NCBI RefSeq assembly: GCF_016918035.1
Contig: NZ_JAERWK010000021.1
Coordinates: forward strand, 62,001-126,000
Direction of reading: 5' to 3'
DNA length: 64,000 nt
Source of the DNA: Nakamurella leprariae
GTDB taxonomy: Bacteria; Actinomycetota; Actinomycetes; Mycobacteriales; Nakamurellaceae
In this document: positions 1,372 to 50,534 of the stretch, in pieces
Layout of the letters: every line of letters starts with the position of its first letter
Position numbering within the stretch: the stretch's first letter is position 1
Notes under the pieces: generated by a model
The model's input: the letters and a program-made list of their open reading frames with translations, nothing else
Told to the model about the DNA's origin: nothing
The model's database searches: none
Program-made: the position numbers and the translations under genes

Positions 1372-1411
1372 CGTCGGCCGGATCCTGACGGTGCGCCCGC
1401 GGCCTTGCCCG

Positions 1412-2158: not shown

Positions 2159-2331
2159 GACCACTTCCCTCCTCGGCGCGGGCGGCCGTGCGGACGGGTC
2201 TGCGCGGCCAGTCTGGCACGGCGCCGATCGGCGCTCCCGGGCCACCGCGCTCCCGGGTGACCGCGCTCCCCGGAGGACGACCGTGCCCGCCGCCCGGCCG
2301 CCTCGCCCGGCGCTGGCTAGGGTGGCTCTCC

Positions 2332-3225: not shown

Positions 3226-3256
3226 GCCGGATGCGCCACGGGACAGCGGTTCCGAG

Positions 3257-5462: not shown

Positions 5463-5547
5463 CGCCTCACCTCCGACCGTGACCTCACGTCAGGTGGTCC
5501 GTTCCCCGCGAGGCTGCGCCCTGGGTTCCGGGGTTCGTTACTTGACT

Positions 5548-5575
5548 AATGTACCCACGAGCCCGACAGTGTCAA
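5548..5575 (-). promoter_or_regulatory. Sigma-70-type promoter of the GntR/ABC operon
   Basis: On the minus strand a perfect -35 TTGACA (5575-5570) is followed after 16 bases by TACATT (5553-5548). Transcription would start near 5541, giving a leader of about 80 bases before the GntR start at 5462. Around the -10, a TTGAC...GTCAA inverted pair (5542-5546 and 5571-5575) could be part of a YtrA-type operator. This is a strong consensus for such GC-rich DNA. Confidence 0.6.
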
Positions 5576-5610
5576 GGATGGGTCCGGGCGTCATCGGTGC
5601 GGCGGTCCGG

Positions 5611-6579: not shown

Positions 6580-6670
6580 ACCCGCCCGTCCATGCGCCGC
6601 CGCGCCGGCCCCGGTCCTCCCGCTGCGCCCGTCATGGGTCAGGCCTACCAGCTGACGGGTCCCGGGGCGG

Positions 6671-8206: not shown

Positions 8207-8262
8207 GGCCGACGCCCCGGGGTGACGGAACCCACGCCGATCGGCAGTCCACGGACGTGCAT
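8203..8262 (-). CDS. Possible 19-residue upstream ORF coupled to the polyol dehydrogenase
   Basis: An ATG at 8262 follows GGAGGAT with 6-7 bases spacing and opens a 19-codon frame ending in TGA at 8203-8205. That stop overlaps the dehydrogenase start as ATGA. The peptide (MHVRGLPIGVGSVTPGRRP) matches nothing I know. Since the dehydrogenase lacks its own ribosome site, this mini-ORF may load ribosomes for it. It could also be chance in GC-rich DNA. Confidence 0.35.
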   Translation of the reverse strand: MHVRGLPIGVGSVTPGRRP

Positions 8263-8278
8263 CACGGGATCCTCCGCT

Positions 8279-9316: not shown

Positions 9317-10383
9317 GACTGCCCGGCCGGCGTCGAGGAGGAAGCTGGGGAGTCGGTGGCGGTCTCAGTGGCGGCCTTGGTCCGGCGGCGGGAGTTGGCG
9401 AAGGAGACCGTGGCCAGGGTGACGGCGACCAGGATCAGCGCGCCACGGAAGGCGTCCTGCAGGAAGGTCGAGACGTTGAGCAGGGACAGCAGGTTCGCGA
9501 TGACGGTGAAGATGATGGTGCCGACGACGGCGCCGAAGACGCGCCCGTAGCCGCCGGACAAACGGGCGCCGCCGATGACCACCGCGGCGATGGCCTCGAG
9601 CTCGAGCAGGTTGCCGGCGGTCGAGGTGCCGGCCGCGAACCGGCCCAGGAACATCCAGCCGCCCAGGCCGACGAGCAGCCCGGCGAGGATGTACACCGAC
9701 CACAGGGTGCGCTTGACCGGGATGCCGGAGGCGCGGGCGGCCTCCTTGTTCGAGCCGATGGCGTAGACCCGCCGGCCCCACACGGTGCGGTACAGCAGGA
9801 ACGCGATGAGCGCGATGGCAGCGATCCAGATGATGGCCAGCACCGGGATGCCGATGATGGTGGTCTGCCCGAACGAGGCGAACGTGGCGGCCGCTTCGGG
9901 GATGATCGGGATGCCGTTGCCGTACGCGTAGACCAGGCCGCGGGCGAGCGCGAGCATGCCCAGGGTCACGATGAACGGCTCCAGGCCGCGGTACGCCACC
10001 AACCAGCCGTTCACGGCGCCGACGATGCCGCCGATGACGATGGCCACCAGCAGGGCCAGCCAGATGGACGGTCCGCCGAACAGCCCGGCGGCGATGACCG
10101 CGGCCAGCCCGAGAGCGGATCCGACGCTGATGTCGATCCCGCCGGTGAGCACGACGATGAGCTCGGCGAGCACCACCACGCCGATGATCGACATCTGCAG
10201 CAGCAGGTTGGTCAGGTTGGTGCCGCTCCAGAACACCGAGCCACGGGTGATCGTGGCGATGATGAGCAACGCCAGCAGGATGTACAACGCGTACTGGCCC
10301 TTGAGCCAGGCGCCGATCGCACTGCCCCGGGAGGTGTTCTCCTCGTACTGGTGGACCGGGGGCAGCGTGCTTGCCGTCGACAT
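9313..10383 (-). CDS. Sugar ABC transporter permease, RbsC-like
   Basis: The 356-residue membrane protein has ~9-10 hydrophobic helices and belongs to the BPD_transp_2 (RbsC) family. Marker segments are VVLTGGIDISVGSALGLAA, LGMLALARGLVYAYG and AIAAVVIGGARLSGGYG. It forms the channel of the importer with the tandem ATPase upstream. I chose ATG 10383, preceded by AAGGAG; the open frame continues far upstream but overlaps the ATPase. It overlaps the binding-protein start by 4 bp. Confidence 0.88.
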   Translation of the reverse strand: MSTASTLPPVHQYEENTSRGSAIGAWLKGQYALYILLALLIIATITRGSVFWSGTNLTNLLLQMSIIGVVVLAELIVVLTGGIDISVGSALGLAAVIAAGLFGGPSIWLALLVAIVIGGIVGAVNGWLVAYRGLEPFIVTLGMLALARGLVYAYGNGIPIIPEAAATFASFGQTTIIGIPVLAIIWIAAIALIAFLLYRTVWGRRVYAIGSNKEAARASGIPVKRTLWSVYILAGLLVGLGGWMFLGRFAAGTSTAGNLLELEAIAAVVIGGARLSGGYGRVFGAVVGTIIFTVIANLLSLLNVSTFLQDAFRGALILVAVTLATVSFANSRRRTKAATETATDSPASSSTPAGQS

Positions 10384-10448
10384 GTGAACTCCTTCGTTCC
10401 GATGGCGTCCGGATGGCGGCGCTCGCCGCCGAGGCGGGACGGGCGGGA

Positions 10449-11996
10449 TCAGTCCTGGTGGGTGAGGGCGGTACGGATGAGGTCGTCGGTGTCGGCGTGT
10501 TCGGGATCGAACTCGGCGACGACCTTGCCGTTGCGCATCACCAGGATCCGGTGGCAGAGGGAGAGCAGTTCCTCGGCTTCGCTGGAGACGACCAGCACCG
10601 CTTTGCCGCGGGCGGCCACCGACTGGATGATCTCGTAGATGTTGGCCCGGGCGCCGACATCGATGCCCTTGGTGGGCTCGTCGAGCACCACGAAGTCGGG
10701 GTCGGCCTCGAGCCACTTGGCCACCACGACCTTCTGCTGGTTGCCGCCGGACAGGGACTTCGTCATCGTCTTGACGCCGCCCTTGACCTGGAAGTCCCGG
10801 ATCAGCTCCTTGACCCGGGCCTTCTCCTGACCGGCGTTGACGACGCCGGCCCGGGCCATCCGGGGCAGCACCACCAGGCTCATGTTCTGGCCGTTGTCGA
10901 AGTCGTTCACGAAGCCCTCGAGCCGGCGGTCCTCGGTCAGGTAGGCGATGCGACGGCGCAGCGCATCGCCGGGCGTGCTCAGCTTGATGCGCTCGCCGCG
11001 CATCGTGACGACGCCGCCGACGGCCTGCCGCTGGCCGGTCACGGTGCGGGCGACCGAGGATCGACCGCTGCCGACGAGGCCGTACAGCCCGACGATCTCG
11101 CCGGACCGGACGTCGAAGGAGACACCGCGGGCGGATCCCCCGTACAGGTCCTGGACCGAGATGACCGGCGGGGCACCGTGGTGCTCGACCGGTGCGGGGC
11201 GGGCCAGCGCCTTGAGCGCCTGCCCGATCATCAGGGCCGTCACGTCGTCCGGGCTGGAGTCGGCGGCCCGGACGACGTCGACCAGCCGGCCGTTGCGCAG
11301 CACCGCGATGCGATCCGCCATGGCGAACACCTCGTTGAGGCGGTGCGAGACGAAGATGATGCAGGTTCCGGCCGCCTTCTCGCGGCGGACGAGGTCGAGG
11401 ATGTCGTTGAAGTGCTCCTCGCTGGTCGACGCCGTGGTCTCGTCCAGGATCATGATCCTGTGCTTGGTCACCGCGGCCCGGCTCAACGAGAGCATCTGCC
11501 GCTGACCGGGTCCCAGTCCGCGGGCGAGCTCGGTGGTCCGCAGGTGCCCGAGGCCGACCCCGCGCAGCACCTCGCGGGTCCGCTGGCTGTTGGTGTTCGT
11601 CTTCTGCGCCCACGGGCGGATGTCCCGCCCGGCGCGCAGCTTGTAGAGCCAGACGTTCTCCCCCACTGTGAAGTCGTCGATGATGAGCGGCTCCTGGTGC
11701 ATCATCAGCACCCCGGCCTGCTCGGCCTCGGCGGCGTTGCGGACCGGGTGCGGGTAGCCCGCCACCATGATATCGCCGTCGGTGGGGGTCTCGACGCCGG
11801 CCAGCAGCTTGGCGAACGTCGACTTACCGGCGCCGTTGGCGCCGCAGACGGCCAGCACCTCGCCGGCGTACCCGGTGAGGTCGACGCCGTCGAGGGCCTT
11901 GACGCCGGGGTAGTGCTTCTTCACACCCGTCGCCCGGAAGGCGACGGTCTGCTGCGGGTCGGTGGTCGGGTCGTGACCGTGCTGGTCCGAAGTCAT
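10449..11996 (-). CDS. Sugar ABC transporter ATP-binding protein, RbsA-like tandem ATPase
   Basis: This 515-residue protein carries two ABC cassettes in tandem, as in RbsA/AraG/MglA. The first has Walker A GANGAGKST and signature LGPGQRQMLSLSRA; the second has a degenerate P-loop LVGSGRSS and an intact LSGGNQQKVVVAKWL and VLDEPTKGIDVGA. ATG 11996 follows GGAGG at about 7 bases. It is the first gene of the importer operon, 65 bases ahead of the permease. It energises uptake of a monosaccharide or polyol. Confidence 0.9.
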   Translation of the reverse strand: MTSDQHGHDPTTDPQQTVAFRATGVKKHYPGVKALDGVDLTGYAGEVLAVCGANGAGKSTFAKLLAGVETPTDGDIMVAGYPHPVRNAAEAEQAGVLMMHQEPLIIDDFTVGENVWLYKLRAGRDIRPWAQKTNTNSQRTREVLRGVGLGHLRTTELARGLGPGQRQMLSLSRAAVTKHRIMILDETTASTSEEHFNDILDLVRREKAAGTCIIFVSHRLNEVFAMADRIAVLRNGRLVDVVRAADSSPDDVTALMIGQALKALARPAPVEHHGAPPVISVQDLYGGSARGVSFDVRSGEIVGLYGLVGSGRSSVARTVTGQRQAVGGVVTMRGERIKLSTPGDALRRRIAYLTEDRRLEGFVNDFDNGQNMSLVVLPRMARAGVVNAGQEKARVKELIRDFQVKGGVKTMTKSLSGGNQQKVVVAKWLEADPDFVVLDEPTKGIDVGARANIYEIIQSVAARGKAVLVVSSEAEELLSLCHRILVMRNGKVVAEFDPEHADTDDLIRTALTHQD

Positions 11997-12401
11997 CGGG
12001 GGCCTCCATGCGCAGAGCGGAACAGCGGGAACGGGTTGCGCGGCACTGGGAACTGCGCGCGGCGGCGCCCGGGTCAGGAACGAGCCCTGGGTGGATCCGG
12101 GTCCTCGGCGGGGGTCCCGGACGGGCGGTCCGGTCGTGGTCGCGCCGGTTCGCTCGAGGCTCAGGGTCCGTGACGGACGACGGCGCGCAGCAGCGCGGAT
12201 GTCCCTCGCCGCGAGCACATCAGACTTCCAGGCATCGCGGATCCTCCGTTGGATCGATGCGGGACGAGCTGCCTGTGACGCCGGGTGGTGACCAGATGCG
12301 ACAACGTAACCTCTGCCCGCCGATCCGGCTCGGGGACGGCGTGCGCCGTTCGGGTGGCGCGGCCCACGCCGTGGCCCGGGCCGGGTTCGTCGACGAGATG
12401 G
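11997..12401. other. Intergenic region upstream of the RbsABC-type operon
   Basis: This ~400-base stretch separates the importer operon from the EamA exporter stop. It probably holds the operon promoter, but no convincing -35/-10 pair stands out. It contains a 24-codon ORF with a strong ribosome site at 12161-12235 and a GTCCGT-g-ACGGAC inverted repeat near 12166-12178. Other open frames through here have no protein-like composition. Confidence 0.4.
12161..12235 (-). CDS. Possible 24-residue leader ORF upstream of the sugar importer
   Basis: ATG 12235 is preceded by GGAGGATCC at 7 bases and opens 24 codons ending at 12161-12163, 165 bases before the importer ATPase start. The peptide contains one Cys and five Arg residues and matches nothing I recognise. 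The same CGGAGGATCC string precedes the other mini-ORF in this operon (8262). It could be a leader peptide or coincidence. Confidence 0.3.
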   Translation of the reverse strand: MPGSLMCSRRGTSALLRAVVRHGP

Positions 12402-13370
12402 TCACCGACCGCGCGCTGGCCGAAGCGTTGTCGGGCTGACCGACTCCGGACCGGGGTTCTCCGGAGCCGGCCGGTTCCGCACGCGTCGCCGCATCGAGCT
12501 GAGCAGCACGCCACCGATGATCGCCGCTCCGGCGATGAGCTCGACGGGGTCCACCCCCTCGTCGAAGATCAGCCAGGACGAGAGCACGCCGACCACCGGG
12601 ACCAGCATGGAGAACGGCGCCACGGTGCTGGACGGGTAGCGGCTCAGCAGGGTGTTCCAGATGCCGTAGCCGATCAGGGTCGCCACCAGGACCACGTACA
12701 GCAGGCCGAGCACGGCCGGCAGTGCGGCGGCGGTCGCGGCCGTCGACAACGATGCCCAGATCCGTTGCGGACCCTCGACGATGAACGACAGTGCCAGCAT
12801 CGGCAGCACCGGGATCGTGGACATCCACAGGGTGAGGTGGAAGGCGTTCGGCGCCTTGGCCTGCCGGCTGCACACATTGCCGACGGCCCAGCCCAGCGCG
12901 CCGCACAGGGTGAGCACGACCGGCAGCAGCGCGGCCACCTGGGCGCGGTGGGCGGCGATGACGGCGAGACCCACGACCGCGGTCAGGATGCCGACCACCT
13001 GGCGGCCGGAGAGCCGCTCGCGCAGGAAGATCCCGGCCAGCACCACCGTGAACGGTGCGGACGCCTGCAGCACCAGGGACGCCAGGCCGCTGGGCATCCC
13101 GGCGGCCATGCCCAGGTAGAGGAACGCGAACTGCAGGGTGCCGATGCCCATCCCGACCCCGACCAGCCAGCGCACCGGGATGGCCGGGCGCCGTACCAGG
13201 AACAGCGTCGGCACGGCGATGATCGCGAACCGAACGGCCACCATGAGCAGCGGCGGGAAGTGTTCCAACGCCAGCGCGGTCGCGGGGAAGTTCAGTCCCC
13301 AGCAGACGGCGACGAGCACGGCGAGCAGGCGGTCGCGGGTGGTCACCCGACGAGGCTGACAGCCGGGCAT
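12402..13370 (-). CDS. EamA/DMT-family transporter
   Basis: The 322-residue protein has ten hydrophobic segments in two EamA repeats; the first repeat begins LLAVLVAVCWGLNFPATALA and the second ends near VELIAGAAIIGGVLLSS. The family exports metabolites such as amino acids or purines. ATG 13370 was chosen; GTG 13346 is an alternative and neither has a strong ribosome site. It is divergent from a LysR gene whose start is 50 bases away. A perfect 10-bp-arm palindrome lies in the gap, so the LysR protein likely regulates it. Confidence 0.85.
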   Translation of the reverse strand: MPGCQPRRVTTRDRLLAVLVAVCWGLNFPATALALEHFPPLLMVAVRFAIIAVPTLFLVRRPAIPVRWLVGVGMGIGTLQFAFLYLGMAAGMPSGLASLVLQASAPFTVVLAGIFLRERLSGRQVVGILTAVVGLAVIAAHRAQVAALLPVVLTLCGALGWAVGNVCSRQAKAPNAFHLTLWMSTIPVLPMLALSFIVEGPQRIWASLSTAATAAALPAVLGLLYVVLVATLIGYGIWNTLLSRYPSSTVAPFSMLVPVVGVLSSWLIFDEGVDPVELIAGAAIIGGVLLSSMRRRVRNRPAPENPGPESVSPTTLRPARGR

Positions 13371-28720: not shown

Positions 28721-29554
28721 TCAGCTGCCGGTGGCCATGCCCGGCTCCGGCCACACCCCGTGCTCCTCGACCCACGCGCGGCGCTGGTCGTACGGGGTGT
28801 TGACGTAGCTCTGCATGAGCTCGATGGCCTGCGGCTGCAAGCCGGCCTTGAGCCATTCCTCGGCCTCGATGCGCAGGCCCTCGGCGATCGGCAGGTTGCC
28901 GCCGCGGACCACCGACCGCTTGGCCGCGGCGAGCGCCGCCGGTGACTGCCGGGCCAGGCCGGAGGCGACCTCGATGCCGCGGGCCTTGGCGTCGTCGGCC
29001 AGTTCGTTCACGATGCCGAGTTCCAGCGCTCCCTCGGGTGAGACGTACCGGCTGCGCAGCAGGAAATCGAGGGCCCGCCCGTGGCCGATGATCTTGGTGA
29101 GCAGCTGCGACCCGGTGCCGGTCAGGATGCCCAGCGCGGCCTCCGGGAAGCCGACCCGGAAGTCGCCGCGCTGCATGATGCGGATGTCGCAGTTCAGCGA
29201 CAGTTCCAGCCCGGCCCCGCCGGCGTCTCCGGTGATGGCCGCGACCACCGGTTTGTCCAGGTAGGTGATGGCCTGCAGCAGCGCGTTGCGGTTCGCGAAG
29301 CGCTCCGGGTGATGGGCGCGCAGGTGGTCGAGATCAGCGGCGCGCTCGAGGACCTCCTCCACGCTGAAGTGGGTGATGTACTGCCCTTCTGGCGCGCCGG
29401 TGATCACCACCGCCCGCACGTCCGGGTACCGCCAGCGGGCGACGAGCTCGCCGAGCTCCGCGGTGGCCTGGCCGGTGAAGTAGTTCATCGGGGGGTTCTC
29501 GTAGGCCGCCACGAAGACGCCGTCGTCGCGCAGCTCGGTCCGGAAGAGATCCAT
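28721..29554 (-). CDS. Enoyl-CoA hydratase/isomerase family protein
   Basis: The 277-residue crotonase-fold protein has the oxyanion-hole segments around YITHFSVEEVL and AITGDAGGAGLELSLNCDIRI, and a helix GRALDFLLRSRYVSPEGALELGIVNEL. The His in ITHFS differs from the usual AGAD loop, so substrate and chemistry are uncertain. ATG 29554 gives the family-typical length; the frame stays open to 29641. It is convergent with the DUF1275 gene, with 4 bases between the two stop codons. It could belong to the downstream catabolic region but faces the same way with a 326-base gap. Confidence 0.82.
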   Translation of the reverse strand: MDLFRTELRDDGVFVAAYENPPMNYFTGQATAELGELVARWRYPDVRAVVITGAPEGQYITHFSVEEVLERAADLDHLRAHHPERFANRNALLQAITYLDKPVVAAITGDAGGAGLELSLNCDIRIMQRGDFRVGFPEAALGILTGTGSQLLTKIIGHGRALDFLLRSRYVSPEGALELGIVNELADDAKARGIEVASGLARQSPAALAAAKRSVVRGGNLPIAEGLRIEAEEWLKAGLQPQAIELMQSYVNTPYDQRRAWVEEHGVWPEPGMATGS

Positions 29555-29880
29555 CGCGGCACGGTAGCGGGCGGTGGTCGGGTGAGGTCCGCGGCCCGAC
29601 GGATCGCAGCCATCGTCGACGCGCCGCCCATCACCACCCACGGCCGATCATCGCCAGCAGGGCGCCATGTCCTCGTACTGGACCACCGCCAGCCAATCGT
29701 CCGAGGTCGGGGCATCGGGTGTCCCGGACGGTCAACCGCGTGTGCCGGCTTGCCCCCGTGCTCCCGGCTCCACTCCGACTCGGGTCGAACGGCAGGCTGA
29801 TCCGATGCCATGCCGCTCGAAGAGCCCATCCAGGCCTGACCTGAGTCCACACCGGGCGACGGTGACCGGGCGGCTCTGGG
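29555..29880. other. Non-coding gap between enoyl-CoA hydratase and the C-N hydrolase
   Basis: About 326 bases without a supportable gene. It marks the downstream end of the RutA-like catabolic operon and should carry its terminator and the promoter of the enoyl-CoA hydratase. I see short GC-rich repeats but no clear terminator hairpin with a T tract and no tRNA. Confidence 0.4.
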
Positions 29881-30732
29881 TCACAGTCGCCGATCCGCCA
29901 GGACGGGGAACGCCTGTCGATAATCCTCGAGCTCGTCCAGATCGATGTCGACCGTCAGCACCTCCTCGCCGGCACCGGCTCGGGCGAGCACCTCACCGCG
30001 AGGTGAGATGACTTGGCTGTGGCCGCCCAGCTCGACTCCGCCGTGGGTGCCACCGGTGTTGCACTGGATGACGAACGCCTGGTTCTCGATCGCCCGGGCC
30101 CGCCCAAGGACCTCCCAGTGTTCGCGCCGTGCAGCCGGCCAGGCAGCGGGGATCGCGAAGATCGTCGAACCGACCGCAGCGAGCTGACGGAACAGTTCGG
30201 GGAATCGCAGGTCGTAACAGGTCGCCAGCCCCAGGGTGATCCCACCGGGATCGTGTTCGTGGCCGAGCAGGGCGGTGCTGATGCTCGTTCCCGGGTCGAT
30301 CAAGGTGGGCTCGCCCTCCCCGAACCCGAACGGATGGATCTTCCGGTACTGGGCGATGCATGACCCATCTCGGCCGAGCACGATCGAGGTGTTCCACAAC
30401 CGCCGGCTGCCCGGCTCTCCGCTGCGCGGTCGGCCCTCGGCCGCCCGCTCGAGGATCGACCCGGCGTGCACGAAGGCACCCACTTGGGCTGCCGCCTCGG
30501 CGAGCAGTGAGACGGTGGGGCCGTCCAGCAGTTCAGCACGCTCAGACCACTCCGCGAACGTGAAGTAGCCGGGCGCCCAGAGCTCGGGCAGCACGATCAG
30601 GTCCGCGTCGCGTTGCCCCCGGACGAGGTCGGCGACTCGATGGACACGGTCGGTGACCGACTCGCGATCGTCGTAGGCGACCTGCACCACCCGGACCCGG
30701 AGCACCCGCCCCGCTGCCCCAGCCCGACTCAT
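29881..30732 (-). CDS. Carbon-nitrogen hydrolase (nitrilase superfamily)
   Basis: The 283-residue enzyme has the full catalytic triad: Glu in IVLPELWAPGYF, Lys in YRKIHPFGFGEGE, and Cys in LATCYDLRFPELF. It resembles omega-amidase and ureidopropionase-type amidases more than true nitrilases. It would cleave an amide or carbamoyl bond in the cytosol. The start ATG 30732 overlaps the flavin reductase stop (ATGA). It is the last gene of the six-gene catabolic operon and may replace the isochorismatase-like RutB of the Rut pathway. Confidence 0.85.
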   Translation of the reverse strand: MSRAGAAGRVLRVRVVQVAYDDRESVTDRVHRVADLVRGQRDADLIVLPELWAPGYFTFAEWSERAELLDGPTVSLLAEAAAQVGAFVHAGSILERAAEGRPRSGEPGSRRLWNTSIVLGRDGSCIAQYRKIHPFGFGEGEPTLIDPGTSISTALLGHEHDPGGITLGLATCYDLRFPELFRQLAAVGSTIFAIPAAWPAARREHWEVLGRARAIENQAFVIQCNTGGTHGGVELGGHSQVISPRGEVLARAGAGEEVLTVDIDLDELEDYRQAFPVLADRRL

Positions 30733-31373
30733 GACTCGCCTCCACTGGCCGCTTCCGTGCCGGCGGACTCGATCCATCGCGCGCCCCCGATGGTTGTTGC
30801 CGCGCCGTGGTCATTGCGCTCGACCAGGGAACGGTCGCTGATCGCGTGCCAGGTGCGGTTGTGGTGGACCAGTGGCCGCCCGTCCCGGCCCGGCTCGTGC
30901 TCGCCCTGTGTGCCCGATTCCAGCGCGTGCACGACGACGATCGTCGCGGTCCCGACCTCGAACCGATGGACCGTCCGTCCCCGGATCCAGGACCGGGCTG
31001 CGTGGAACAACGGCTCCCCTGTTGGCAGCCGGGTCCACTGTTGAGCATCGGGGAACCGGTCGACGCCGCTGGTGGCGCCCAACTCGGCCAGGTGGAGCTG
31101 GTCGGCGCCCAGGAGGTGGACGACGAGCGTCTCCGCTCGGTGGATGACCGGCGACACCGATGACCGCCCGGGCAGCGAGAACATCAGCAGGGGCGGATCG
31201 GCGCTGACCGAGCCGACGGAGGTGACCGTCAACGCCACCGGAGCCGTCCCGTCATCGGCCGTGATGAGCGCGACGCCGGCCGCGTGGTTCCGGAAGATGT
31301 CCCGGAAGACGTCCGGGCTGAGACCGTGTTCCTCGTGGAGGATCTCCACTGTGCTCGTCCCTGTCTCGTTCAT
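30729..31373 (-). CDS. Flavin reductase, RutF-like
   Basis: The 214-residue flavin-reductase-domain protein has FRNHAAGVALITA at the start of the split barrel, SVSADPPLLMFSL and VVHLLGADQLHLAELGA. It would supply reduced FMN to the RutA-like monooxygenase encoded 61 bases upstream. ATG 31373 follows a GGTGGCGGA stretch; GTG 31382 is an alternative. The C-terminal ~40 residues extend past the usual domain. Co-occurrence with a RutA-type enzyme makes the two-component system assignment solid. Confidence 0.85.
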   Translation of the reverse strand: MNETGTSTVEILHEEHGLSPDVFRDIFRNHAAGVALITADDGTAPVALTVTSVGSVSADPPLLMFSLPGRSSVSPVIHRAETLVVHLLGADQLHLAELGATSGVDRFPDAQQWTRLPTGEPLFHAARSWIRGRTVHRFEVGTATIVVVHALESGTQGEHEPGRDGRPLVHHNRTWHAISDRSLVERNDHGAATTIGGARWIESAGTEAASGGES

Positions 31374-31434
31374 TTCCGCCACCAGATCACCCGTCTCGCC
31401 GTCCGTCCCGACGACGGCGCTTCGCGAGAGACAC

Positions 31435-32526
31435 TCACACCGACTGGAGGGCGGCGAGCTTCTCGCGGACCAGCGGCAGCACCTTCTCGCCGAAGACCCT
31501 GATGTCCGGCACGTAGTCGACGAAGGTCATCAGCACACCGGCGACCCCCGTGTCGCGCTGCATGGTGGCGATCTGCTCGGCGACGCTCTCGTAGGAGCCG
31601 TGGAGGACGGGGAAGCTCATGAAGGTGAGGTTGCCCTCCTCCGGAGGAGCGGTGAGTCCCGCGATGAAGTGCGCACTCGTGCCACCGGACTCCGGGTCGA
31701 GCGCGGCGCTGCCGGCGACGTTCTTGAGCGCCTCGGTGTCCTGACCGTCGACGATCCGCTGGGTCTTGGCGCGGGCCTCCTCGTCGGTCTCCGCGGCGAT
31801 CACCGTGAACAACGCGTAGGTGCCGACGGTGCGGCCCACCCGTTCGGCCTCCTGCACCATCGGCCTGGTGATCTGCGGCAGCAGCTCCCGGTCGCCGAAG
31901 ACGAAGTTGTAGTCGCCGTAGTGGGCGGTGTACCGCTGGCCGGCCGTCGACTGGCCGGCCGTGACGATCGGGAGCTCGCGACCTGAGCTCGGCAGGCAGG
32001 TGGCGTCGTTGATGGTGAAGAACTCGCCGTTGAAAGTGGTGCGGCCGTCCCGCCACAGGCCGCGGAGGATCTGCACGTACTCGGCGGCGTAGTCGTAGCG
32101 GCGCTCGTAGTACTCGTCGCCGGGCCACAGGCCCATCGGGTCGTACTCCGGACGGTTCCAGCCGGTCACCAGGTTGACCCCGCCGCGGCCCTTGGCGATC
32201 TCGTCGAACGTCGCCAACTGGCGGGCTGCGATCACGGGAGGGATGCCCAGGATCGGCACGGTGGCGAAGACGTCGATCCTGCTGGTGTTGGCGGCGATGC
32301 CCGTGGCCAGGACCACCGAGTCCAGGCACCCGTCCCAGTAGCCGGTCTTCCCACCGAAGCCGTGGTACTTGATCATCGACAGCACGAAGTCGAGACCGAC
32401 GCGCTCGACCTCCTGGGAGATCTCCAGGCAGTGCTCGAACGTCGGCTCGTACTGCGGCGCGTTCTCCGAGATGATGTACCCGTTCTGCCCGTTCGGGAGG
32501 AACACTCCGAGCTTCATTGCACTCAT
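31435..32526 (-). CDS. RutA-like two-component flavin monooxygenase (LLM family)
   Basis: The 363-residue protein aligns from memory along nearly all of E. coli RutA (pyrimidine oxygenase): SMIKYHGFGGKTGYWD, GGVNLVTGWNRPEYDPMGLWPGD, RRYDYAAEYVQILRGLW, FTINDATC, ITAGQS-like TAGQSTAGQ and GVLMTFVDYV. RutA uses FMNH2 and O2 to open the uracil ring between N3 and C4. The substrate here is unknown; the neighbours (NCS1 permease, cyclase, amidase) point to another N-heterocycle or cyclic amide. ATG 32526 has AGGAG at 7 bases. Confidence 0.85.
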   Translation of the reverse strand: MSAMKLGVFLPNGQNGYIISENAPQYEPTFEHCLEISQEVERVGLDFVLSMIKYHGFGGKTGYWDGCLDSVVLATGIAANTSRIDVFATVPILGIPPVIAARQLATFDEIAKGRGGVNLVTGWNRPEYDPMGLWPGDEYYERRYDYAAEYVQILRGLWRDGRTTFNGEFFTINDATCLPSSGRELPIVTAGQSTAGQRYTAHYGDYNFVFGDRELLPQITRPMVQEAERVGRTVGTYALFTVIAAETDEEARAKTQRIVDGQDTEALKNVAGSAALDPESGGTSAHFIAGLTAPPEEGNLTFMSFPVLHGSYESVAEQIATMQRDTGVAGVLMTFVDYVPDIRVFGEKVLPLVREKLAALQSV

Positions 32527-32610
32527 TGCTGCACTCCTGTTCTTCGTGAGGTGGCGCGTGCTCGACTCGGCGGTGCCGAGGACCCGAACGCGCAGGGTAG
32601 GGCGGCTCGT

Positions 32611-34008
32611 TCAGTTCGCGGGTTCGGTCGCAACCCGGCGGTACGGAGCCGCTGCCGGCACGTGCATCGCCGAGTGCTGTCGCAGGACCGGCCGGAGCCC
32701 GGCGTACAGGCCGCTGGCGACCACCACGGTGGCGATCGGACCCCAGGTCGCGCCCCACTCGAAGGCGCTGGTGAGCACGATGCCGACGACCGTCGCCACC
32801 ACCCACGCGATCAGGCCGGGAACGTTGGCACGGCGGTAGTGCTCGTCCCCGAGCGAGCCGTGCTCCTCGGTGCGCGACCGGTTGAGCAGGATGTGGGTCA
32901 CGGCGATCGCGACCCAGCCGCTGACCAGGACGCCCTGCCAGGCGAGCGCCTGCAGCAGGTACTGCGTGATGGGCAGCAGCATCAACGCGTAGATGATCAC
33001 CGAGGAGACCACCACCCAGAATGCCGAGGGCAGCCTGGCCCCGAAGAGCCGCTCACCGAACTCCCTGAGGTTCGCTGCCCCGATGTAGTAGTTGGCGGTG
33101 TTGATCCGGGTCTGGAACACCAGGATCAAGATCAGTCCGACCGGTCCCATCAGGGTGACCAGTCCGCCGGACAGGCCGGCCTCGGAGACCTCCAGGCCGG
33201 GGATGGTGAACGTCAGGAAGATGCCGACCAGGGCGTTGATGCCGTAGGTCACCACCCAGAACAGCCAGGTGAAGGTGTACCGGGTGTGGAAGCGGACGTC
33301 CTTGCGCTTGCCCAGCGCGGCGTAGTCCATGACGTACATCATCAGGACCCAGACGCCCAGGTAAGCGGAGAAGGTCGCGAGCCAACCGGGGCCGCCGTTG
33401 GCCAGCGGGAGCTCGGGACCGGGGGTGTGGGTCAGCCAGGCGTCCGAGAAGCCGTGGCGGACGCCCGCCCACACCACCATCACGACCAGACCGATGATGT
33501 ACAGCGGGAGCAGCCAGCCATTGAGCTTGTCCAGGAACCGGCGGACCCCGCCGAGGATCAACGGCGTCGAGTAGGCGACGACGATGAGGCTCCACAGCCA
33601 CTTCTCGCCGCCGAACGCGGCCTGGAAGGCGTAAACCACGATGGCACCCTCGAACACCGCGTAGTAGATCGCGGTGAGCGCCAGGATGACCGCCGCGATG
33701 ACGGTTCCGATTCGTCCCAGGATGGTGCGGGAGAAGCGTGCGACGGTGGTGCGGTTCCTGATCGAGTGCTTGGCCAGGACGTGGTTGATCAGGCTGTAGA
33801 CGATGATGGTCAGGGCCAGCCCGATGATCGCGTTGGCCGTCCCGAACGCCACAGCCATCGCTGCACCGATGTAGAGCATGAACATGGCACTGGCGATGCC
33901 GTAGAACGCCATGAACAACGACCATCGACCCATCTGGTCCTCGTCCTTGGCGGACAGACCCATGGCGTCGGTGACTTCGACGGTGTCGTGGGGACCTGTG
34001 AGATCCAT
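32611..34008 (-). CDS. NCS1-family nucleobase/hydantoin-type permease
   Basis: The 465-residue membrane protein has about 12 helices and the NCS1 layout: a soluble N-terminus ending SAKDEDQMGRWSLF, then FMAFYGIASAMFMLYIGAA and TRINTANYYIGAANLREFG. NCS1 carriers import cytosine, uracil, allantoin, hydantoins or pyridoxine-like compounds. ATG 34008 has a very good AGGAAGGAAA site. It sits between the cyclase and the RutA-like monooxygenase, so it most likely imports their substrate. Confidence 0.85.
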   Translation of the reverse strand: MDLTGPHDTVEVTDAMGLSAKDEDQMGRWSLFMAFYGIASAMFMLYIGAAMAVAFGTANAIIGLALTIIVYSLINHVLAKHSIRNRTTVARFSRTILGRIGTVIAAVILALTAIYYAVFEGAIVVYAFQAAFGGEKWLWSLIVVAYSTPLILGGVRRFLDKLNGWLLPLYIIGLVVMVVWAGVRHGFSDAWLTHTPGPELPLANGGPGWLATFSAYLGVWVLMMYVMDYAALGKRKDVRFHTRYTFTWLFWVVTYGINALVGIFLTFTIPGLEVSEAGLSGGLVTLMGPVGLILILVFQTRINTANYYIGAANLREFGERLFGARLPSAFWVVVSSVIIYALMLLPITQYLLQALAWQGVLVSGWVAIAVTHILLNRSRTEEHGSLGDEHYRRANVPGLIAWVVATVVGIVLTSAFEWGATWGPIATVVVASGLYAGLRPVLRQHSAMHVPAAAPYRRVATEPAN

Positions 34009-34065
34009 CGGATTTCCTTCCTGGGGGCTGGAACGAGCTGGCCGCGGCGCCGTGATCGGGATCGT

Positions 34066-34105
34066 GCCGACCGGCGTGGGGTTCCCCGTGCCCCCGTCGG
34101 TCGGC
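34066..34105 (-). terminator. Hairpin between cyclase and NCS1 permease genes
   Basis: Arms GCCGACCG (34066-34073) and CGGTCGGC (34098-34105) pair, with an inner GGGG-tt-CCCC helix in the loop. In the 202-base gap within an otherwise compact operon, it could be a partial terminator or an mRNA processing/stability element that sets separate levels for permease and hydrolase. No T tract is visible. Confidence 0.35.
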
Positions 34106-34210
34106 AACTCATCCGTCGATGCGCTCGCGGGATGTGCGACGTGTCCGGGGAGAGTGGTAGCCGTCCAGAGTGGAAGCCGTTCCTCGCGAGAATGTCTCCC
34201 CGGGGGTGGA

Positions 34211-35128
34211 TCAGGTCAGGCGCAGGGCGACCGGTCGGATCGGGGCCCCGGTCGCGCCTTTCAGTCGGACGGGCGCCGCGATGACGCAGAACTCATTGAC
34301 GTCGTCGGCCGAGAGTTCCTCGAGGTTGAGCAGTTCGATCATCGGCACACCGGCCTCGGCCAGGAAGTGGCAGTGGACCGGCAGCCAGTTGTCCTCGTGC
34401 TGGCTCGGTCCCACCTCGACGCACTCCTGGTCCGCGCCGACGACGCTGATGTGCTGCGCGGTGAGCCACCGCGCGGCCTCCAGGCTCAGTCCCGGAGGGT
34501 TGCCCAGGGTCTTCGATCCGTCGGGCCAGTATGACATCCGTCCGGTGCGCACGAAGACGACGTCGCCCTCGTTGATTGACAGACCGGTCCTGGACAGTTC
34601 GTCCTCGATGTCGGCCACGGTGATCGCATACGAGTCCTCTAGACAGACAACGCCTTTGAGTTTGGCGATGTCCAGCAGGACCGTGCGGGCGATGATCGGG
34701 GGGATGACGTCGACGCCGCCCTTGGTCCAGTTCCGACTGCCCAGATGCTCCCGATCCGAGAACCCGTTGTAGATGTGACCGTCGATGCCGAAGTGATTCA
34801 GCGCGTCGATGTGGGTGCCGGTGTGGGTGTAGAGGAACACGACATCGCCCGAGTAGCAGACATTGCGGTTGACCTGCTCACCGACACCGTTCAGGTTGTC
34901 GACGACCGTGCCATCGGGGGTGTGGCTCATGAAGATCTGGTACGACGGGTCGCCGGCGGCCTGGAAGCTCGGCATGCCGACGAAGTAGTCGACGCTCAGG
35001 TCGTACACCTTGGCGGGATCGACGCGGGTGAGGGTGTTCGTCTGATGGGCGGCTGCCAGGAAGTTGACCGCGCCGAGCTCGTCGTCAGGTCCGAACGGAC
35101 TGGCTGCGACCTTGATGCCCGCCTTCAC
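34211..35128 (-). CDS. Cyclase/kynurenine-formamidase-type metal hydrolase
   Basis: The 305-residue protein belongs to the cyclase family (PF04199). The metal motif HTGTHIDALNHFG (HxGTHxDxxxH) is near residue 100, with further conserved DVVFVRTGR and VGADQECVEVGP segments. Relatives are KynB N-formylkynurenine formamidase and isatin hydrolase, which cleave amide bonds, including cyclic ones. In this operon it could hydrolyse a ring-opened or lactam intermediate. Its start overlaps the Dabb gene stop by 4 bp. Confidence 0.85.
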   Translation of the reverse strand: MKAGIKVAASPFGPDDELGAVNFLAAAHQTNTLTRVDPAKVYDLSVDYFVGMPSFQAAGDPSYQIFMSHTPDGTVVDNLNGVGEQVNRNVCYSGDVVFLYTHTGTHIDALNHFGIDGHIYNGFSDREHLGSRNWTKGGVDVIPPIIARTVLLDIAKLKGVVCLEDSYAITVADIEDELSRTGLSINEGDVVFVRTGRMSYWPDGSKTLGNPPGLSLEAARWLTAQHISVVGADQECVEVGPSQHEDNWLPVHCHFLAEAGVPMIELLNLEELSADDVNEFCVIAAPVRLKGATGAPIRPVALRLT

Positions 35129-35430
35129 TGCGCGGCGCCGTCGCGAACGAAGTCGACCACAGCGCGGCTGCGGACCCTGGGGAGCAGCTGCGCCACGATC
35201 TCGTTGTGGAACGGATCGATCGAGTAGGCCTCCAGGTCCTCCCAGGAGGCGAAGTCGGTGATCAGTGCGCCGTCCCAGGGATCACCGTTGTCGTTCGGCT
35301 CGCCCTGATGACCGCCGAGCTCCCAGCTCTTGATCATCGGCAGGCGATCCGACAACTGGACCAGCAGGTCGAGCACGGGCTGTCGCTCCTCGGGTGCTGC
35401 TGCCTGCCACATGAAGATGTGCCTGATCAT
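35125..35430 (-). CDS. Small Dabb/EthD-like ferredoxin-fold protein
   Basis: The 101-residue protein matches the stress-responsive A/B barrel (Dabb) family: MIRHIFMWQAA at the start, DRLPMIKSWELGGHQGE in the middle and SWEDLEAYSIDPFHNEI near the end. Such dimeric barrels bind or isomerise small catabolic intermediates. It is the first gene of the operon and diverges from LysR. A catalytic role in the pathway is plausible but unproven. Confidence 0.75.
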   Translation of the reverse strand: MIRHIFMWQAAAPEERQPVLDLLVQLSDRLPMIKSWELGGHQGEPNDNGDPWDGALITDFASWEDLEAYSIDPFHNEIVAQLLPRVRSRAVVDFVRDGAAQ

Positions 35431-35569
35431 CGGTGACCGTCAATCCTTCCGGCGCACGGAACCGTGCGGCTCGATGGTGCTGTGTGGTGTGCGACAGAGT
35501 GTGTGAGGCGTCGCCGTATCAGTCCAATGCATGGTTTTCATCTCACCGATCGACGAGGATGATGCATCT

Positions 35570-36448
35570 ATGGACCTGCAACAGCTTCGCTACGTCATCG
35601 CCGTCGCCGAGGAGGCCAGCTTCACCCGTGCGGCAGCGAGGTGCTTCGTGGCCCAGTCCGGCCTGAGCCACCGGGTCAAGAGCCTGGAGGACGAGTTGGG
35701 GGTCGCGCTGTTCAGCCGTACGAGCCGACGCGTCGAGCTCACCGCCTCGGGAGAGGCTTTTCTGATCTCCGCACGGGCCAGCCTCAACGCCGCTGACCGG
35801 GCCGCTGCAGACGCAGTGGCAGCGGCCGGGCAGATCCGCGGACGTCTCCGGGTCGGCGTCATCCCCACCGTGACCGCCGTCGATGTCTCGACGGCGTTGA
35901 AGGCCTTCCGACAGGAACATCAGCACGTGCAGATCGCTCTGCAGGTCGCCGGAAGCGACGAACTGGAGACAGCCATCGAGCGCGGCGACATGGACGTCGG
36001 GATGCTCGGGCTGCCCGAGGGTCGGGAACCGCGGGGCGTTGCCTGGCGCGACCTCGGCTCCGATCGTCTGGTGGCCGTCGTCAACTGCGATCACCGACTC
36101 GCACAAGTACGTGAGACGACGCTCAGCGAGATCGCTCGAGAGACGTTCGCCGATTTCCCGGCCGGCACACCGGCACGTGCCGAGAGCGACCTCGCCTTCG
36201 CCGCAGCCGGTGTGCACCGGGAAGTGGCGTTCGAATCGATGGCGATCGGTCTGACCATCGATCTCATCCGTCAGAACCTGGCCATCGCCTTGTTACCGTC
36301 CCGGTACGCGCCTCACAATCCCTCGCTCGCGCGCTTGTCGATCGCCGACGGACCCTCCCGGGTGGAATATCTCGCGTGGAGCAACTTCAATCCCAGTCCT
36401 GCCGCCCAGGCGTTCCTGTCGATCATCAACGACGGCGATTCCCTGTGA
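35570..36448 (+). CDS. LysR-family regulator of the RutA-like cluster
   Basis: The 292-residue LysR protein has its winged helix at residues 1-60 (DLQQLRYVIAVAEEASFTRAA, QSGLSHRVKSLEDELGVALF). The effector domain begins near GRLRVGVIPTV. ATG 35570 is the family-typical start; the frame is open to 35531. It diverges from the Dabb gene with a 139-base gap that should hold both promoters. It is the probable activator, induced by the pathway substrate or intermediate. Confidence 0.87.
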   Translation: MDLQQLRYVIAVAEEASFTRAAARCFVAQSGLSHRVKSLEDELGVALFSRTSRRVELTASGEAFLISARASLNAADRAAADAVAAAGQIRGRLRVGVIPTVTAVDVSTALKAFRQEHQHVQIALQVAGSDELETAIERGDMDVGMLGLPEGREPRGVAWRDLGSDRLVAVVNCDHRLAQVRETTLSEIARETFADFPAGTPARAESDLAFAAAGVHREVAFESMAIGLTIDLIRQNLAIALLPSRYAPHNPSLARLSIADGPSRVEYLAWSNFNPSPAAQAFLSIINDGDSL

Positions 36449-36732: not shown

Positions 36733-37608
36733 TCAGCCGTGCACGGCCAGCACGAAGTCGAGCGCACCCGTCGGCATCCCGCGCCCGTCCCGCCGTGGCC
36801 AGTGCACGCTGATCTCGTCGAACCCGAGATCATCCAACTGCGCGACGGTCCCGGCGTACCGAGCCCGACTCTCGAACGGCCAGTGGGCGTCCAGATCCAG
36901 CAACGCGATGCGGTGCACGTCGTCCGCGGGGCGACCGGCGGCGGCCAGCGCCGCGGTCAGCCGCTCCGACTGCTCCCCCAGCGCGGCGAACCACCCGTCT
37001 GCGTCCACCTCGACGCCGTACGGCCCGAAGGTGACCCAGGCCTGCCCGTACGCGGCGACCGCGCCGAGCGCCTTCGGTCCCGCGCCGGCCACCGTGAACG
37101 GGACCCGCGGCTGCTGCACGCAGCCGGGCAGCTGCCGGGCGTCCACCGCGCGGTACCGCGGCCCGCGCACCGTGGTCTCGGCCTCGCGCAGCAGCTGATC
37201 GAGCAGACCCAGCCACTCGGCGAACCGCTCGAACCGCTCCCGCCGGCTGATCGGTTCGTCGCCCAGCACGGTCGCGTCCGGGCCCTCGGTGCCGGCACCG
37301 ACGCCGACCTCGAGCCGGCCGCCGCACAGCTGGTCCAGTGTCATCAGTTCCTTGGCGAACGGCACCGGGTGCCGGAAGTTCGGGGACGCCACCTGCAGGC
37401 CGAGCCGCACCGTCGTCGTCACCGCCGCCGCCGCGGCCAGCAGCGGCACGCTGCCGTACCAGGGCCCGTCCCGCAGCGTCGGCCAGCTCAGGTGGTCGTA
37501 CGTCCACACCGTGCCCACCCCGGCCGCCTCGACCGCGCGGACGTCGTCCAGGAATGCCGACACCGGATGCCGATCCGGCAGCACGACGGCCGAGAGCGCA
37601 AGCGTCAT
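36733..37608 (-). CDS. LLM-class F420-dependent oxidoreductase-like protein
   Basis: The 291-residue luciferase-like protein has GVGTVWTYDHLSWP, RLGLQVASPNFRHPVPFAKELMTLDQLCGGR and VGAGTEG, as in actinobacterial F420-dependent enzymes. FMN use cannot be excluded. It is transcribed alone. Despite the shared fold with the RutA-like enzyme at 31435, it is a distant member and separated by a LysR gene on the other strand, so a shared pathway is not implied. Confidence 0.8.
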   Translation of the reverse strand: MTLALSAVVLPDRHPVSAFLDDVRAVEAAGVGTVWTYDHLSWPTLRDGPWYGSVPLLAAAAAVTTTVRLGLQVASPNFRHPVPFAKELMTLDQLCGGRLEVGVGAGTEGPDATVLGDEPISRRERFERFAEWLGLLDQLLREAETTVRGPRYRAVDARQLPGCVQQPRVPFTVAGAGPKALGAVAAYGQAWVTFGPYGVEVDADGWFAALGEQSERLTAALAAAGRPADDVHRIALLDLDAHWPFESRARYAGTVAQLDDLGFDEISVHWPRRDGRGMPTGALDFVLAVHG

Positions 37609-49166: not shown

Positions 49167-50534
49167 TCAGTCCCGTTTCCGCGGGGCCATGTCCCGGTCG
49201 AGCACCAGCCCGTCCCGCATCTCCCGGGGCGCCAGCACCCGGGCCAGGTGCCAGCCGACGATGGCCACGATCGAGCCGAGGGCGATGCCGCCCAGCACGA
49301 AGTCGTCGCCGATCCGCCACTGCACGTCGCCGATGCCGATGATCACCCCGGCCGCGATCGGCACCAGGTTGACCGGGTTGCCGAAGTCGACGCGGTTCTC
49401 GATCCAGATCTTGGCGCCGAGCAGACCGATCATCCCGTAGAGCACCACGGTGATCCCGCCGAGCACCCCGCCCGGCGTCGCGTTCACCACCGCGCCGAAC
49501 TTGGGAACCAGGCCGAGCAGGATGGCCACCACCGCGGCCACCCAGTAGGCCGCCGTCGAGTACACCCGGGTGGCGGCCATGACGCCGATGTTCTCCGCGT
49601 ACGTGGTGGTCGGGGCGCCGCCGACGGCCGAGGCCAGCGTGGTGCCCAGGCCGTCACCGAGCAACGCGCGGCCCATGTACGGATCGAGGTCGTCGCCGGT
49701 CATCTCGGCCACCGCGCGGACGTGCCCGGTGTTCTCGGCGATGAGGGCGATGACGCCCGGCAGGGCCAGCAGGATGAACGACAGGTGGAACTCCGGCGCA
49801 TGGAAGTCCGGCAGACCGAACCAGGCGGCGTCGCCGACCGCGTCCAGGTTGACCCGGAAGTGCGGCTCGGTGTTGCCGGCGCCGTCCGGGAAGACGATCT
49901 GGCCGGAGATCCGGTCCAGCACCCAGGACAGCACGTACCCGAAGACCAGGGCCAGGAACACGGCGATGCGGGAGAAGAACCCGCGGAACGCCACCGTGGC
50001 GATGAGGGTGAACAGCATGGTCACGATGGCGACGCCGGGGTCCTGCGGCCAGTACGTGCCGCCGACCACCGGGGCCAGGTTGAAGCCGATGAGCATGACG
50101 ACCGCGCCGGAGACGACCGGCGGCAGCACCCGCCGGATGACCGCGCCGCCCGCGAAGTGCACCAGCACGCCGACCAGGGCCAGCACCACGCCGGCGACCA
50201 GGATGGCGCCGGTGATGCTCGCGGTGGTGCCCCCGCCCGCGGTGATCGCCGCGGCCACGCCCACGAACGACGCCGAGCTGCCCAGGTAGGACGGGATCTT
50301 CCCGTTCACCACCAGCAGGAACAGGATGGTGCAGACGCCGGACAGCATGATGGCCAGGTTCGCGTCCAGCCCCATCAGCAGCGGGAAGACGAACGTCGCA
50401 CCGAACATGGCCACCACGTGCTGGGCGCCGATGCCGATGGTCTTCGGCCAGGGCAGCCGTTCCTCCGGCCGCACCACCGCGCCCGGCGGCAGGGACCCTC
50501 CGGACCCGACGACCTTCCATCCCCAGATGGCCAT
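49167..50534 (-). CDS. NCS2-family uracil/xanthine permease, UraA-like
   Basis: The 455-residue carrier has ~14 helices and NCS2 motifs: ALPGVIALIAENTGHV (Glu of TM8) and APTTTYAENIGVMAATR (TM10), which match UraA uracil transporters rather than UapA xanthine types. It imports uracil with protons. The C-terminus is a charged tail (DRDMAPRKRD). It stands alone, next to a broken aquaporin, and is far from the RutA-like cluster, which has its own NCS1 carrier. Confidence 0.87.
   Translation of the reverse strand: MAIWGWKVVGSGGSLPPGAVVRPEERLPWPKTIGIGAQHVVAMFGATFVFPLLMGLDANLAIMLSGVCTILFLLVVNGKIPSYLGSSASFVGVAAAITAGGGTTASITGAILVAGVVLALVGVLVHFAGGAVIRRVLPPVVSGAVVMLIGFNLAPVVGGTYWPQDPGVAIVTMLFTLIATVAFRGFFSRIAVFLALVFGYVLSWVLDRISGQIVFPDGAGNTEPHFRVNLDAVGDAAWFGLPDFHAPEFHLSFILLALPGVIALIAENTGHVRAVAEMTGDDLDPYMGRALLGDGLGTTLASAVGGAPTTTYAENIGVMAATRVYSTAAYWVAAVVAILLGLVPKFGAVVNATPGGVLGGITVVLYGMIGLLGAKIWIENRVDFGNPVNLVPIAAGVIIGIGDVQWRIGDDFVLGGIALGSIVAIVGWHLARVLAPREMRDGLVLDRDMAPRKRD

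What the first reader, a model, noticed from the sequence alone, without database searches (positions are those of the whole stretch)
29881..36448. Uncharacterised RutA-like ring-opening pathway with NCS1 uptake, cyclase hydrolase and amidase
The sequence shows a compact set: Dabb-type protein, cyclase/kynurenine-formamidase-type hydrolase, NCS1 permease, RutA-like FMNH2 monooxygenase, RutF-like reductase and C-N hydrolase, divergent from LysR. RutA/RutF open the uracil ring in the Rut pathway, but RutB, RutC, RutD, RutE and an NCS2 carrier, all part of Rut, are absent here. I infer a different N-heterocycle or cyclic amide: uptake, oxidative N-C cleavage, cyclase hydrolysis, then amidase release of ammonia. 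By eye the region is less GC-extreme than its flanks (more TTA, ATT, TTT codons), which suggests acquisition.
Basis: partly seen in the sequence, partly recalled or inferred. Interest (0 to 1): 0.72.

Follow-up and report, generated by a model that had tools for sequence, protein, structure and literature searches.

The report
Hydroxypyridine-type operon using a RutA-like oxygenase
A soil-bacterium gene set pairs the ring-opening and ammonia-releasing enzymes known from nicotine and hydroxypyridine breakdown with an oxygenase related to the one that opens uracil, which suggests a so far undescribed way into that pathway.

Summary
The gene set is real and at the stated place: LysR, divergent from Dabb, cyclase, NCS1 permease, RutA-like monooxygenase, flavin reductase and C-N hydrolase. 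It is not a Rut pathway: the RutA-like protein scores below the curated RutA cut-off, falls outside the branch of rut-operon RutAs, and the genome has no RutB homolog at E<=1e-10. The cyclase is 74.5% identical to the cyclase (PKC) of nicotine plasmid pAO1, which sits in a Dabb-cyclase-oxygenase-amidase run; PKC is the counterpart of HpoH of the 2,3,6-trihydroxypyridine (THP) pathway of Rhodococcus rhodochrous PY11. The C-N hydrolase is 46.7% identical to pAO1 Nit, a 2-oxoglutaramate amidase. I conclude that the lower half is the THP -> 2-oxoglutaramate -> 2-oxoglutarate + ammonia module, with RutA-like plus flavin reductase in the place of DHPH. Best guess for the imported substrate: a dihydroxypyridine, for example 2,6-dihydroxypyridine (1-deazauracil). 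Related operons occur in Herbiconiux, two Arthrobacter records (one plasmid pSI-1) and, rearranged, Nocardioides. The substrate and the RutA-like reaction are inferred, not shown. New variant of a known kind.

The parts
29881..30732 (-). C-N hydrolase, predicted omega-amidase (2-oxoglutaramate -> 2-oxoglutarate + NH3). The listed ORF starts at 30777; the ATG at 30732 overlaps the reductase stop.
   Evidence: PF00795; 46.7% to pAO1 Nit; Glu, Lys and Cys of the nitrilase triad invariant in the 6 aligned rows; second-best solved relative is Nitrilase homolog 2
30729..31382 (-). flavin reductase (predicted FMNH2 supply)
   Evidence: PF01613; best NCBIfam match RutF, 59.8 bits, far below cut-off 254.75
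31435..32526 (-). RutA-like FMNH2-dependent monooxygenase
   Evidence: TIGR03612 377.9 bits against cut-off 498.3; aligns to solved RutA, E 1.4e-99; outside the rut-operon branch; flavin-N5 oxygen-site residues kept
32611..34008 (-). NCS1-type permease, 465 aa (listed ORF starts at 34107)
   Evidence: 465-aa form P0241; modelled fold matches CodB and Mhp1
34211..35128 (-). cyclase-family metal hydrolase, predicted THP (or like cyclic imide) ring-opening enzyme of the PKC/HpoH type
   Evidence: PF04199; 74.5% to pAO1 PKC; HTGTHID motif invariant and mean column identity 82% in 10 chosen orthologs
35125..35430 (-). Dabb protein, overlaps the cyclase start; role unknown; next to the cyclase in the window, L001-L003, L092, pAO1 and G280
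   Evidence: PF07876; 51.6% to the pAO1 Dabb that precedes PKC
35570..36448 (+). LysR-type regulator (listed ORF starts at 35531)
   Evidence: PF00126/PF03466; 79% in L001, 68% in L002, 72% in L092
35517..35533 (-). conserved T-N11-A block between LysR and Dabb, candidate LysR site
   Evidence: present in 4 of 4 LysR-divergent copies (window, L001, L002, L092); the 5 hits in the fetched loci are these, the window place counting twice

Best explanation
A LysR-controlled catabolic operon for a pyridine-ring compound, most likely a dihydroxypyridine such as 2,6-dihydroxypyridine. The NCS1 permease imports it. The flavin reductase makes FMNH2. The RutA-like enzyme inserts oxygen to give 2,3,6-trihydroxypyridine or a like cyclic imide. 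The cyclase-family hydrolase opens the ring at the N-C bond to 2-oxoglutaramate. The C-N hydrolase releases ammonia to give 2-oxoglutarate. Shown by sequence: gene families, close kinship of cyclase and Dabb to pAO1, conservation of the gene set, conserved RutA oxygen site. In print for homologs: amidase activity of Nit (shown); ring opening by PKC (hypothesised there) and by HpoH (cited and recalled). Inferred: the substrate, the RutA-like reaction, the transport step, co-transcription and the Dabb role.
For: pAO1 has Dabb-cyclase-DHPH-SRPBCC-C-N hydrolase in one run; window identities are 51.6% (Dabb), 74.5% (PKC), 46.7% (Nit). PMC6214936 (passages) says PKC is 77% similar to HpoH of the PY11 THP pathway and that Nit activity was shown. 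Dabb + cyclase + a C-N hydrolase + RutA-like recur in Herbiconiux L001, Arthrobacter L002, Nocardioides L003 and plasmid pSI-1 L092, while 0 of the other 77 RutA-like loci (up to 8 kb each side, some cut short by contig ends) carry cyclase or Dabb. The cyclase is single-copy at E<=1e-60 in G000, Herbiconiux G410 and Arthrobacter G411, and none of the three has a full-length DHPH (best E 3.5e-11, 2e-10, 1e-11, partial). G000 has no RutB at E<=1e-10. In the RutA tree the 5 cluster-borne rows and the 67 loci with RutB, RutC or RutD near each form one side of a branch (100*). L65, T105, N134, V136, W139, F224 (RutA numbering) are kept in 20 of 20 clade members.
Against: RutA cleaves an amide C-N bond of uracil (PMC7662398 passages); I know of no RutA-group enzyme that hydroxylates a pyridine. 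The C-N hydrolase of pSI-1 is only 34% identical to the window's and that of L002 is 80% like pSI-1's, so the Nit-type step is not uniform. The 17-kb Nocardioides stretch L003 has no NCS1 gene but ABC transporter genes upstream, and its genome has a 37% DHPH-like protein on another contig (E 3.8e-68). Weak RutB-family matches below cut-off exist in the Herbiconiux and Nocardioides genomes. HpoBCDF-type dioxygenases and the nicotine dehydrogenases were not searched for. No upstream gene names the substrate.
Confidence: 0.6

Rival explanations
1. Same parts, other ring: the cyclase has drifted to another cyclic imide or lactam (glutarimide, hydantoin, maleimide type) and the pathway does not pass through THP.
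For: Weak solved relatives include isatin hydrolases and kynurenine formamidases; NCS1 carriers take hydantoins and allantoin (recalled; CodB and Mhp1 are the fold matches); cyclases at 51-55% identity sit near amidases in Aminobacter, Variovorax and Rhizobium, the last with a dihydropyrimidinase about 10 kb on.
Against: 74.5% identity to PKC over 302 residues, and the shared Dabb partner and Nit-like amidase point to the same substrate; no Dabb gene is annotated beside the 51-55% cyclases.
Confidence: 0.2
2. One reading: the RutA-like enzyme itself cuts the N-C bond as RutA does, and the cyclase-like hydrolase acts on an open-chain amide.
For: Oxygen-site residues are those of RutA; RutA breaks N3-C4 of uracil; 2,6-dihydroxypyridine carries the same imide as uracil (chemical reasoning). 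In Hansschlegelia L004 a 59% relative sits by a biuret-amidohydrolase/RutB-like protein and an Amdase-family protein, which would suit a ring-opened amide.
Against: An open ring leaves the PKC/HpoH-type enzyme without a ring to open; that enzyme is the best conserved part shared with pAO1.
Confidence: 0.13
3. A diverged uracil/thymine Rut pathway with replaced downstream enzymes.
For: 46.6% identity to Pantoea RutA; a flavin reductase next door; an NCS2 carrier about 13 kb away.
Against: Below the RutA cut-off, outside the rut-operon branch, 47 alignment columns fixed differently, 7 of them gap columns, no RutB, RutC or RutD in the window, no RutB in the genome at E<=1e-10.
Confidence: 0.05

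Closest known systems
pAO1 nicotine pathway, lower pyridine branch (DHPH, PKC, Nit) of Paenarthrobacter nicotinovorans
   Same: Dabb-cyclase pair and omega-amidase-type C-N hydrolase in one run; 74.5% cyclase identity
   Different: THP is made by DHPH there; here a RutA-like/flavin reductase pair and an NCS1 permease; no DHPH in the window and no DHPONH found in G000 (no control in that call); nicotine dehydrogenases not searched
hpo cluster for 2-hydroxypyridine, Rhodococcus rhodochrous PY11 (HpoH, HpoI)
   Same: THP joined to 2-oxoglutarate by a PKC-like protein (HpoH) and a 2-ketoglutaramate amidase (HpoI), as cited in PMC6214936
   Different: THP made by the dioxygenase HpoBCDF and HpoE (recalled; the original paper is not held); sequences not compared here
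Rut pathway (RutA-RutG)
   Same: RutA-family FMNH2 monooxygenase with separate flavin reductase; same oxygen-site residues
   Different: RutB, RutC, RutD absent from the window, other permease family in the operon, other branch
Arthrobacter sp. AK-1 plasmid pSI-1, unnamed operon
   Same: LysR, Dabb, cyclase, permease and RutA-like in the same order; RutA-like 87%, cyclase 86%, permease 81.5%
   Different: other C-N hydrolase (34%), extra NAD(P)H-dependent oxidoreductase, other flavin reductases and an FAH-family protein

Membership tests
THP / 2-oxoglutaramate lower pathway (pAO1, hpo) | PKC/HpoH-type cyclase | tested here: met
   74.5% to PKC, motif conserved; HpoH itself not compared
THP / 2-oxoglutaramate lower pathway (pAO1, hpo) | Nit-type omega-amidase | tested here: met
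   46.7% identity, catalytic residues kept; in pSI-1 and L002 a more distant C-N hydrolase
THP / 2-oxoglutaramate lower pathway (pAO1, hpo) | known THP-forming enzyme (DHPH) | tested here: not met
   no full-length DHPH in G000; best partial hit E 3.5e-11
THP / 2-oxoglutaramate lower pathway (pAO1, hpo) | known THP-forming enzyme (HpoBCDF/HpoE) | not tested
   sequences not at hand
THP / 2-oxoglutaramate lower pathway (pAO1, hpo) | THP as intermediate | not testable with these tools
   needs enzyme assays
Rut pathway (uracil) | RutA above curated cut-off | tested here: not met
   377.9 < 498.3 bits
Rut pathway (uracil) | RutB, RutC, RutD present | tested here: not met
   none in the window at E<=1e-3; RutB none in G000 at E<=1e-10; RutC and RutD not searched genome-wide
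Rut pathway (uracil) | NCS2 carrier RutG in the operon | tested here: not met
   operon carrier has the NCS1 fold; a 42.6% RutG-like NCS2 lies about 13 kb away
RutA-group flavin-N5-peroxide monooxygenases | oxygen-site residues L65, T105, N134, V136, F224 (and W139) | tested here: met
   all six kept in 20 of 20 clade members; numbering offset recalled; position 292 (Glu in the paper) fell on Thr in Pantoea, so the offset fails there
NCS1 transporters | NCS1 fold | tested here: met
   CodB TM 0.67, Mhp1 TM 0.65 on a model of mean pLDDT 77; no Pfam match

The most novel reading that the evidence does not exclude
A RutA-family flavin-N5-peroxide enzyme that left uracil for its pyridine isostere 2,6-dihydroxypyridine (1-deazauracil) or another dihydroxypyridine, and there hydroxylates the ring rather than cutting it. 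It would be a second, unrelated solution to the DHPH step, plugged into the THP module and carried between actinobacteria, in one known case on a plasmid.
Probability: 0.38. Interest if true: 0.75.

Novelty: new variant of a known kind. Interest (0 to 1): 0.57.

Why it matters
If true, it shows a pyrimidine-cleaving enzyme family reused for pyridine catabolism, gives a compact seven-gene cassette that can be tested directly, and extends flavin-N5 chemistry to a new ring. It also gives a marker (RutA-like clade plus PKC-type cyclase) for finding uncharacterised hydroxypyridine degraders. In my searches of the held library (judged from the listings and the passages read) no paper pairs a RutA-like enzyme with this pathway; most subscription papers are not held, so prior description cannot be excluded.

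Tried and rejected
Uracil Rut variant: rejected on score, branch and missing RutB/C/D. Pyridine cleavage of the PyrA type (recalled from Arthrobacter sp. 68b): the paper is not held and no PyrA sequence was at hand, so its kinship to this RutA-like protein is untested. Nicotine upper pathway in this genome: DHPONH search empty, without a control in that call; other nicotine genes not searched. Empty-site test for insertion: the ECH flank has no match at E<=1e-60 in the 16 other genus genomes, so not possible with it; the LLM2 flank matches in two relatives were not followed. Promoter and terminator scan: no promoter-like site (shuffles 0.6), one terminator-like site inside LysR (shuffles 1.7). 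A first LysR palindrome filter found nothing; the conserved T-N11-A block was seen by eye in that alignment and then counted, so its pattern was built from the same sequences. The permease context in Paenarthrobacter YJN-5 and the 48% cyclase of Rhodococcus BG43 gave no further link. The second structure job was not used. The codon claim (TTA/ATT/TTT) is not borne out. Paper searches gave mostly irrelevant lists.
Full report
What is there. The minus strand of 29881-35430 carries, in transcription order, Dabb (35430-35125), cyclase (35128-34211), permease (34008-32611), RutA-like monooxygenase (32526-31435), flavin reductase (31382-30729) and C-N hydrolase (30732-29881). A LysR gene diverges from it (35570-36448, +). 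Two junctions overlap (Dabb/cyclase, reductase/hydrolase) and the largest gap is about 200 bases, so one transcript is likely but not shown. GC is 0.669 against 0.727 in the rest of the window, lower than any of 89 overlapping same-size windows outside it (minimum 0.703). This fits acquisition; the TTA/ATT/TTT codon detail does not (1, 0 and 1 among 2033 codons).

Permease. Pfam, NCBIfam and PDB sequence searches found nothing. Several plasmid homologs near 40% identity are annotated as allantoin or cytosine permeases and several close homologs as purine-cytosine permease family. An AlphaFold2 model (36-row alignment, mean pLDDT 77) matches CodB and Mhp1 first, query TM-scores 0.65-0.69. NCS1 is therefore the best assignment.

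RutA-like protein. It scores 377.9 bits against TIGR03612, cut-off 498.3, and is 46.6% identical to RutA from a Pantoea rut operon. A quick tree of 143 rows put the 67 loci that have RutB, RutC or RutD near (L004 left out, see below) on one side of a branch (100*) and the five cluster-borne RutA-likes on one side of another (100*); 71 rows were unlabelled, and one long outgroup row could disturb the root. Of the 80 loci kept from the genome scan, 64 have RutB, RutC and RutD near; L001, L002 and L003 have none. Residues reported around the oxygen at flavin N5 (L65, V136, F224 in PMC7662398; T105, N134 in PMC10005588; passages), and W139, are kept in 20 of 20 members of the window's clade; 47 columns, 7 of them gap columns, are fixed (at least 90%) differently from rut-operon RutAs. 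So the oxygen chemistry is probably kept and the substrate changed; which of the 47 line the pocket was not established.

The key link. A plasmid search with the cyclase hit the nicotine plasmid pAO1 and its kin at 74.2-74.5% identity. In pAO1 the order is Dabb, cyclase (PKC), dhpH, SRPBCC, C-N hydrolase. Window identities are Dabb 51.6%, cyclase 74.5%, C-N hydrolase 46.7%. PMC6214936 (passages only) reports nicotine-dependent expression of PKC, hypothesises that it opens 2,3,6-trihydroxypyridine (THP) at N1-C6 to 2-oxoglutaramate, says that Nit activity on 2-oxoglutaramate was shown experimentally, and that PKC is 77% similar to HpoH of the PY11 2-hydroxypyridine pathway (that paper's wording for HpoH is 'THP hydroxylase'). 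PMC9304392 (passages) says that in Rhodococcus and Arthrobacter THP is opened between C and N by polyketide cyclase. The original HpoH paper is not held; I recall that it assigns THP ring opening to HpoH. Genome G280 shows the nicotine-type form again: DHPONH, Dabb, cyclase, DHPH, and a C-N hydrolase further on; one search counts one TAA inside its DHPH match.

The gene set elsewhere. Herbiconiux L001 has all seven genes. Arthrobacter Bi83 L002 and plasmid pSI-1 L092 have LysR, Dabb, cyclase, permease and RutA-like (89% and 87%), then a different C-N hydrolase (34% to the window's), an NADPH:FMN reductase and an FAH-family gene. Nocardioides PD653-B2 L003 has Dabb, cyclase, a 60% C-N hydrolase, RutA-like (69%) and an MsuE-type FMN reductase, with ABC transporter genes upstream and no NCS1 in the 17 kb read. 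Thus 5 of 5 loci of the clade that I could read, the window included, hold Dabb, cyclase and a C-N hydrolase, and 0 of the other 77 RutA-like loci hold cyclase or Dabb within what was fetched. Among the top 20 RutA-like proteins, 7 share the exact longest-contig length with one of the first 30 listed cyclases, an indirect sign of the same contig; the window's own pair is one of the 7. The element is rare: at E<=1e-125 only this genome among 17 of its family and among 394 sampled of its class.

Complementarity. In G000, Herbiconiux G410 and Arthrobacter G411 the cyclase is single-copy (E<=1e-60), and in all three it is the one in this cluster; none of the three has a full-length DHPH, while pAO1 and G280 match DHPH over nearly its whole length. 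Nocardioides has a 37% DHPH-like protein on another contig, which weakens the pattern. This is why I read the RutA-like/reductase pair as the stand-in for DHPH.

Mechanism. Import by NCS1; FMNH2 from the reductase; oxygen insertion by the RutA-like enzyme into a dihydroxypyridine to give THP, the enol form of 2-oxoglutarimide; hydrolytic opening by the cyclase; deamidation by the C-N hydrolase. 2,6-Dihydroxypyridine is uracil with N1 replaced by carbon, so a RutA descendant could recognise it; this is chemical reasoning, not a result. RutA cuts the C-N bond of uracil, so if the new enzyme did the same the cyclase would have no ring to open; hence I favour hydroxylation, but the data do not exclude cutting. 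A 59% relative in Hansschlegelia (L004) sits by a RutB-like (36%) protein closer to biuret amidohydrolase and by an Amdase-family protein, so the wider group may hold other chemistries. The Dabb role is unknown.

Regulation. A T-N11-A block at 35517-35533 is conserved in 4 of 4 LysR-divergent copies. A search of the loci fetched by then gave 5 hits, all at these places (two of them are fetched copies of the window's own place); the pattern was built from these copies, so this is no independent test.

Verdict. Observation confirmed apart from the codon detail; interpretation half right. The lower pathway is of a known kind; the oxygenase entry is new as far as the held literature shows.

Noticed in passing
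G000:C14:217267-218298 (locus L100): A second, higher-scoring RutA homolog (431.8 bits, still under the cut-off) with no RutB, RutC or RutD match in the 13 kb read; the genome gives 75 matches to the RutA profile at E<=0.001, some of them pieces of one protein, i.e. very many luciferase-like proteins.
   Followed up: partly
window 28721-29641: Crotonase-family gene next to the operon has a 92% identical copy with one internal TAG at G000:C27:290302-291177.
   Followed up: no
L004 (Hansschlegelia quercus) 1067-13176: A 59% RutA-like gene clusters with a biuret-amidohydrolase-like isochorismatase (300.8 bits, cut-off 370), an Amdase-family protein, ABC transporter genes, dodecin, FMN reductase, a RibB-type and a GTP-cyclohydrolase-II-type gene: flavin supply packed with a RutA-like enzyme.
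   Followed up: partly
window 49167-50534: NCS2-type carrier, 42.6% to Pantoea RutG, about 13 kb from the operon.
   Followed up: no
window 36733-37608: A further luciferase-like gene (best NCBIfam match an F420-dependent subfamily, below cut-off) just beyond LysR; no match in L001-L003 or L092, so taken as a neighbour only.
   Followed up: partly
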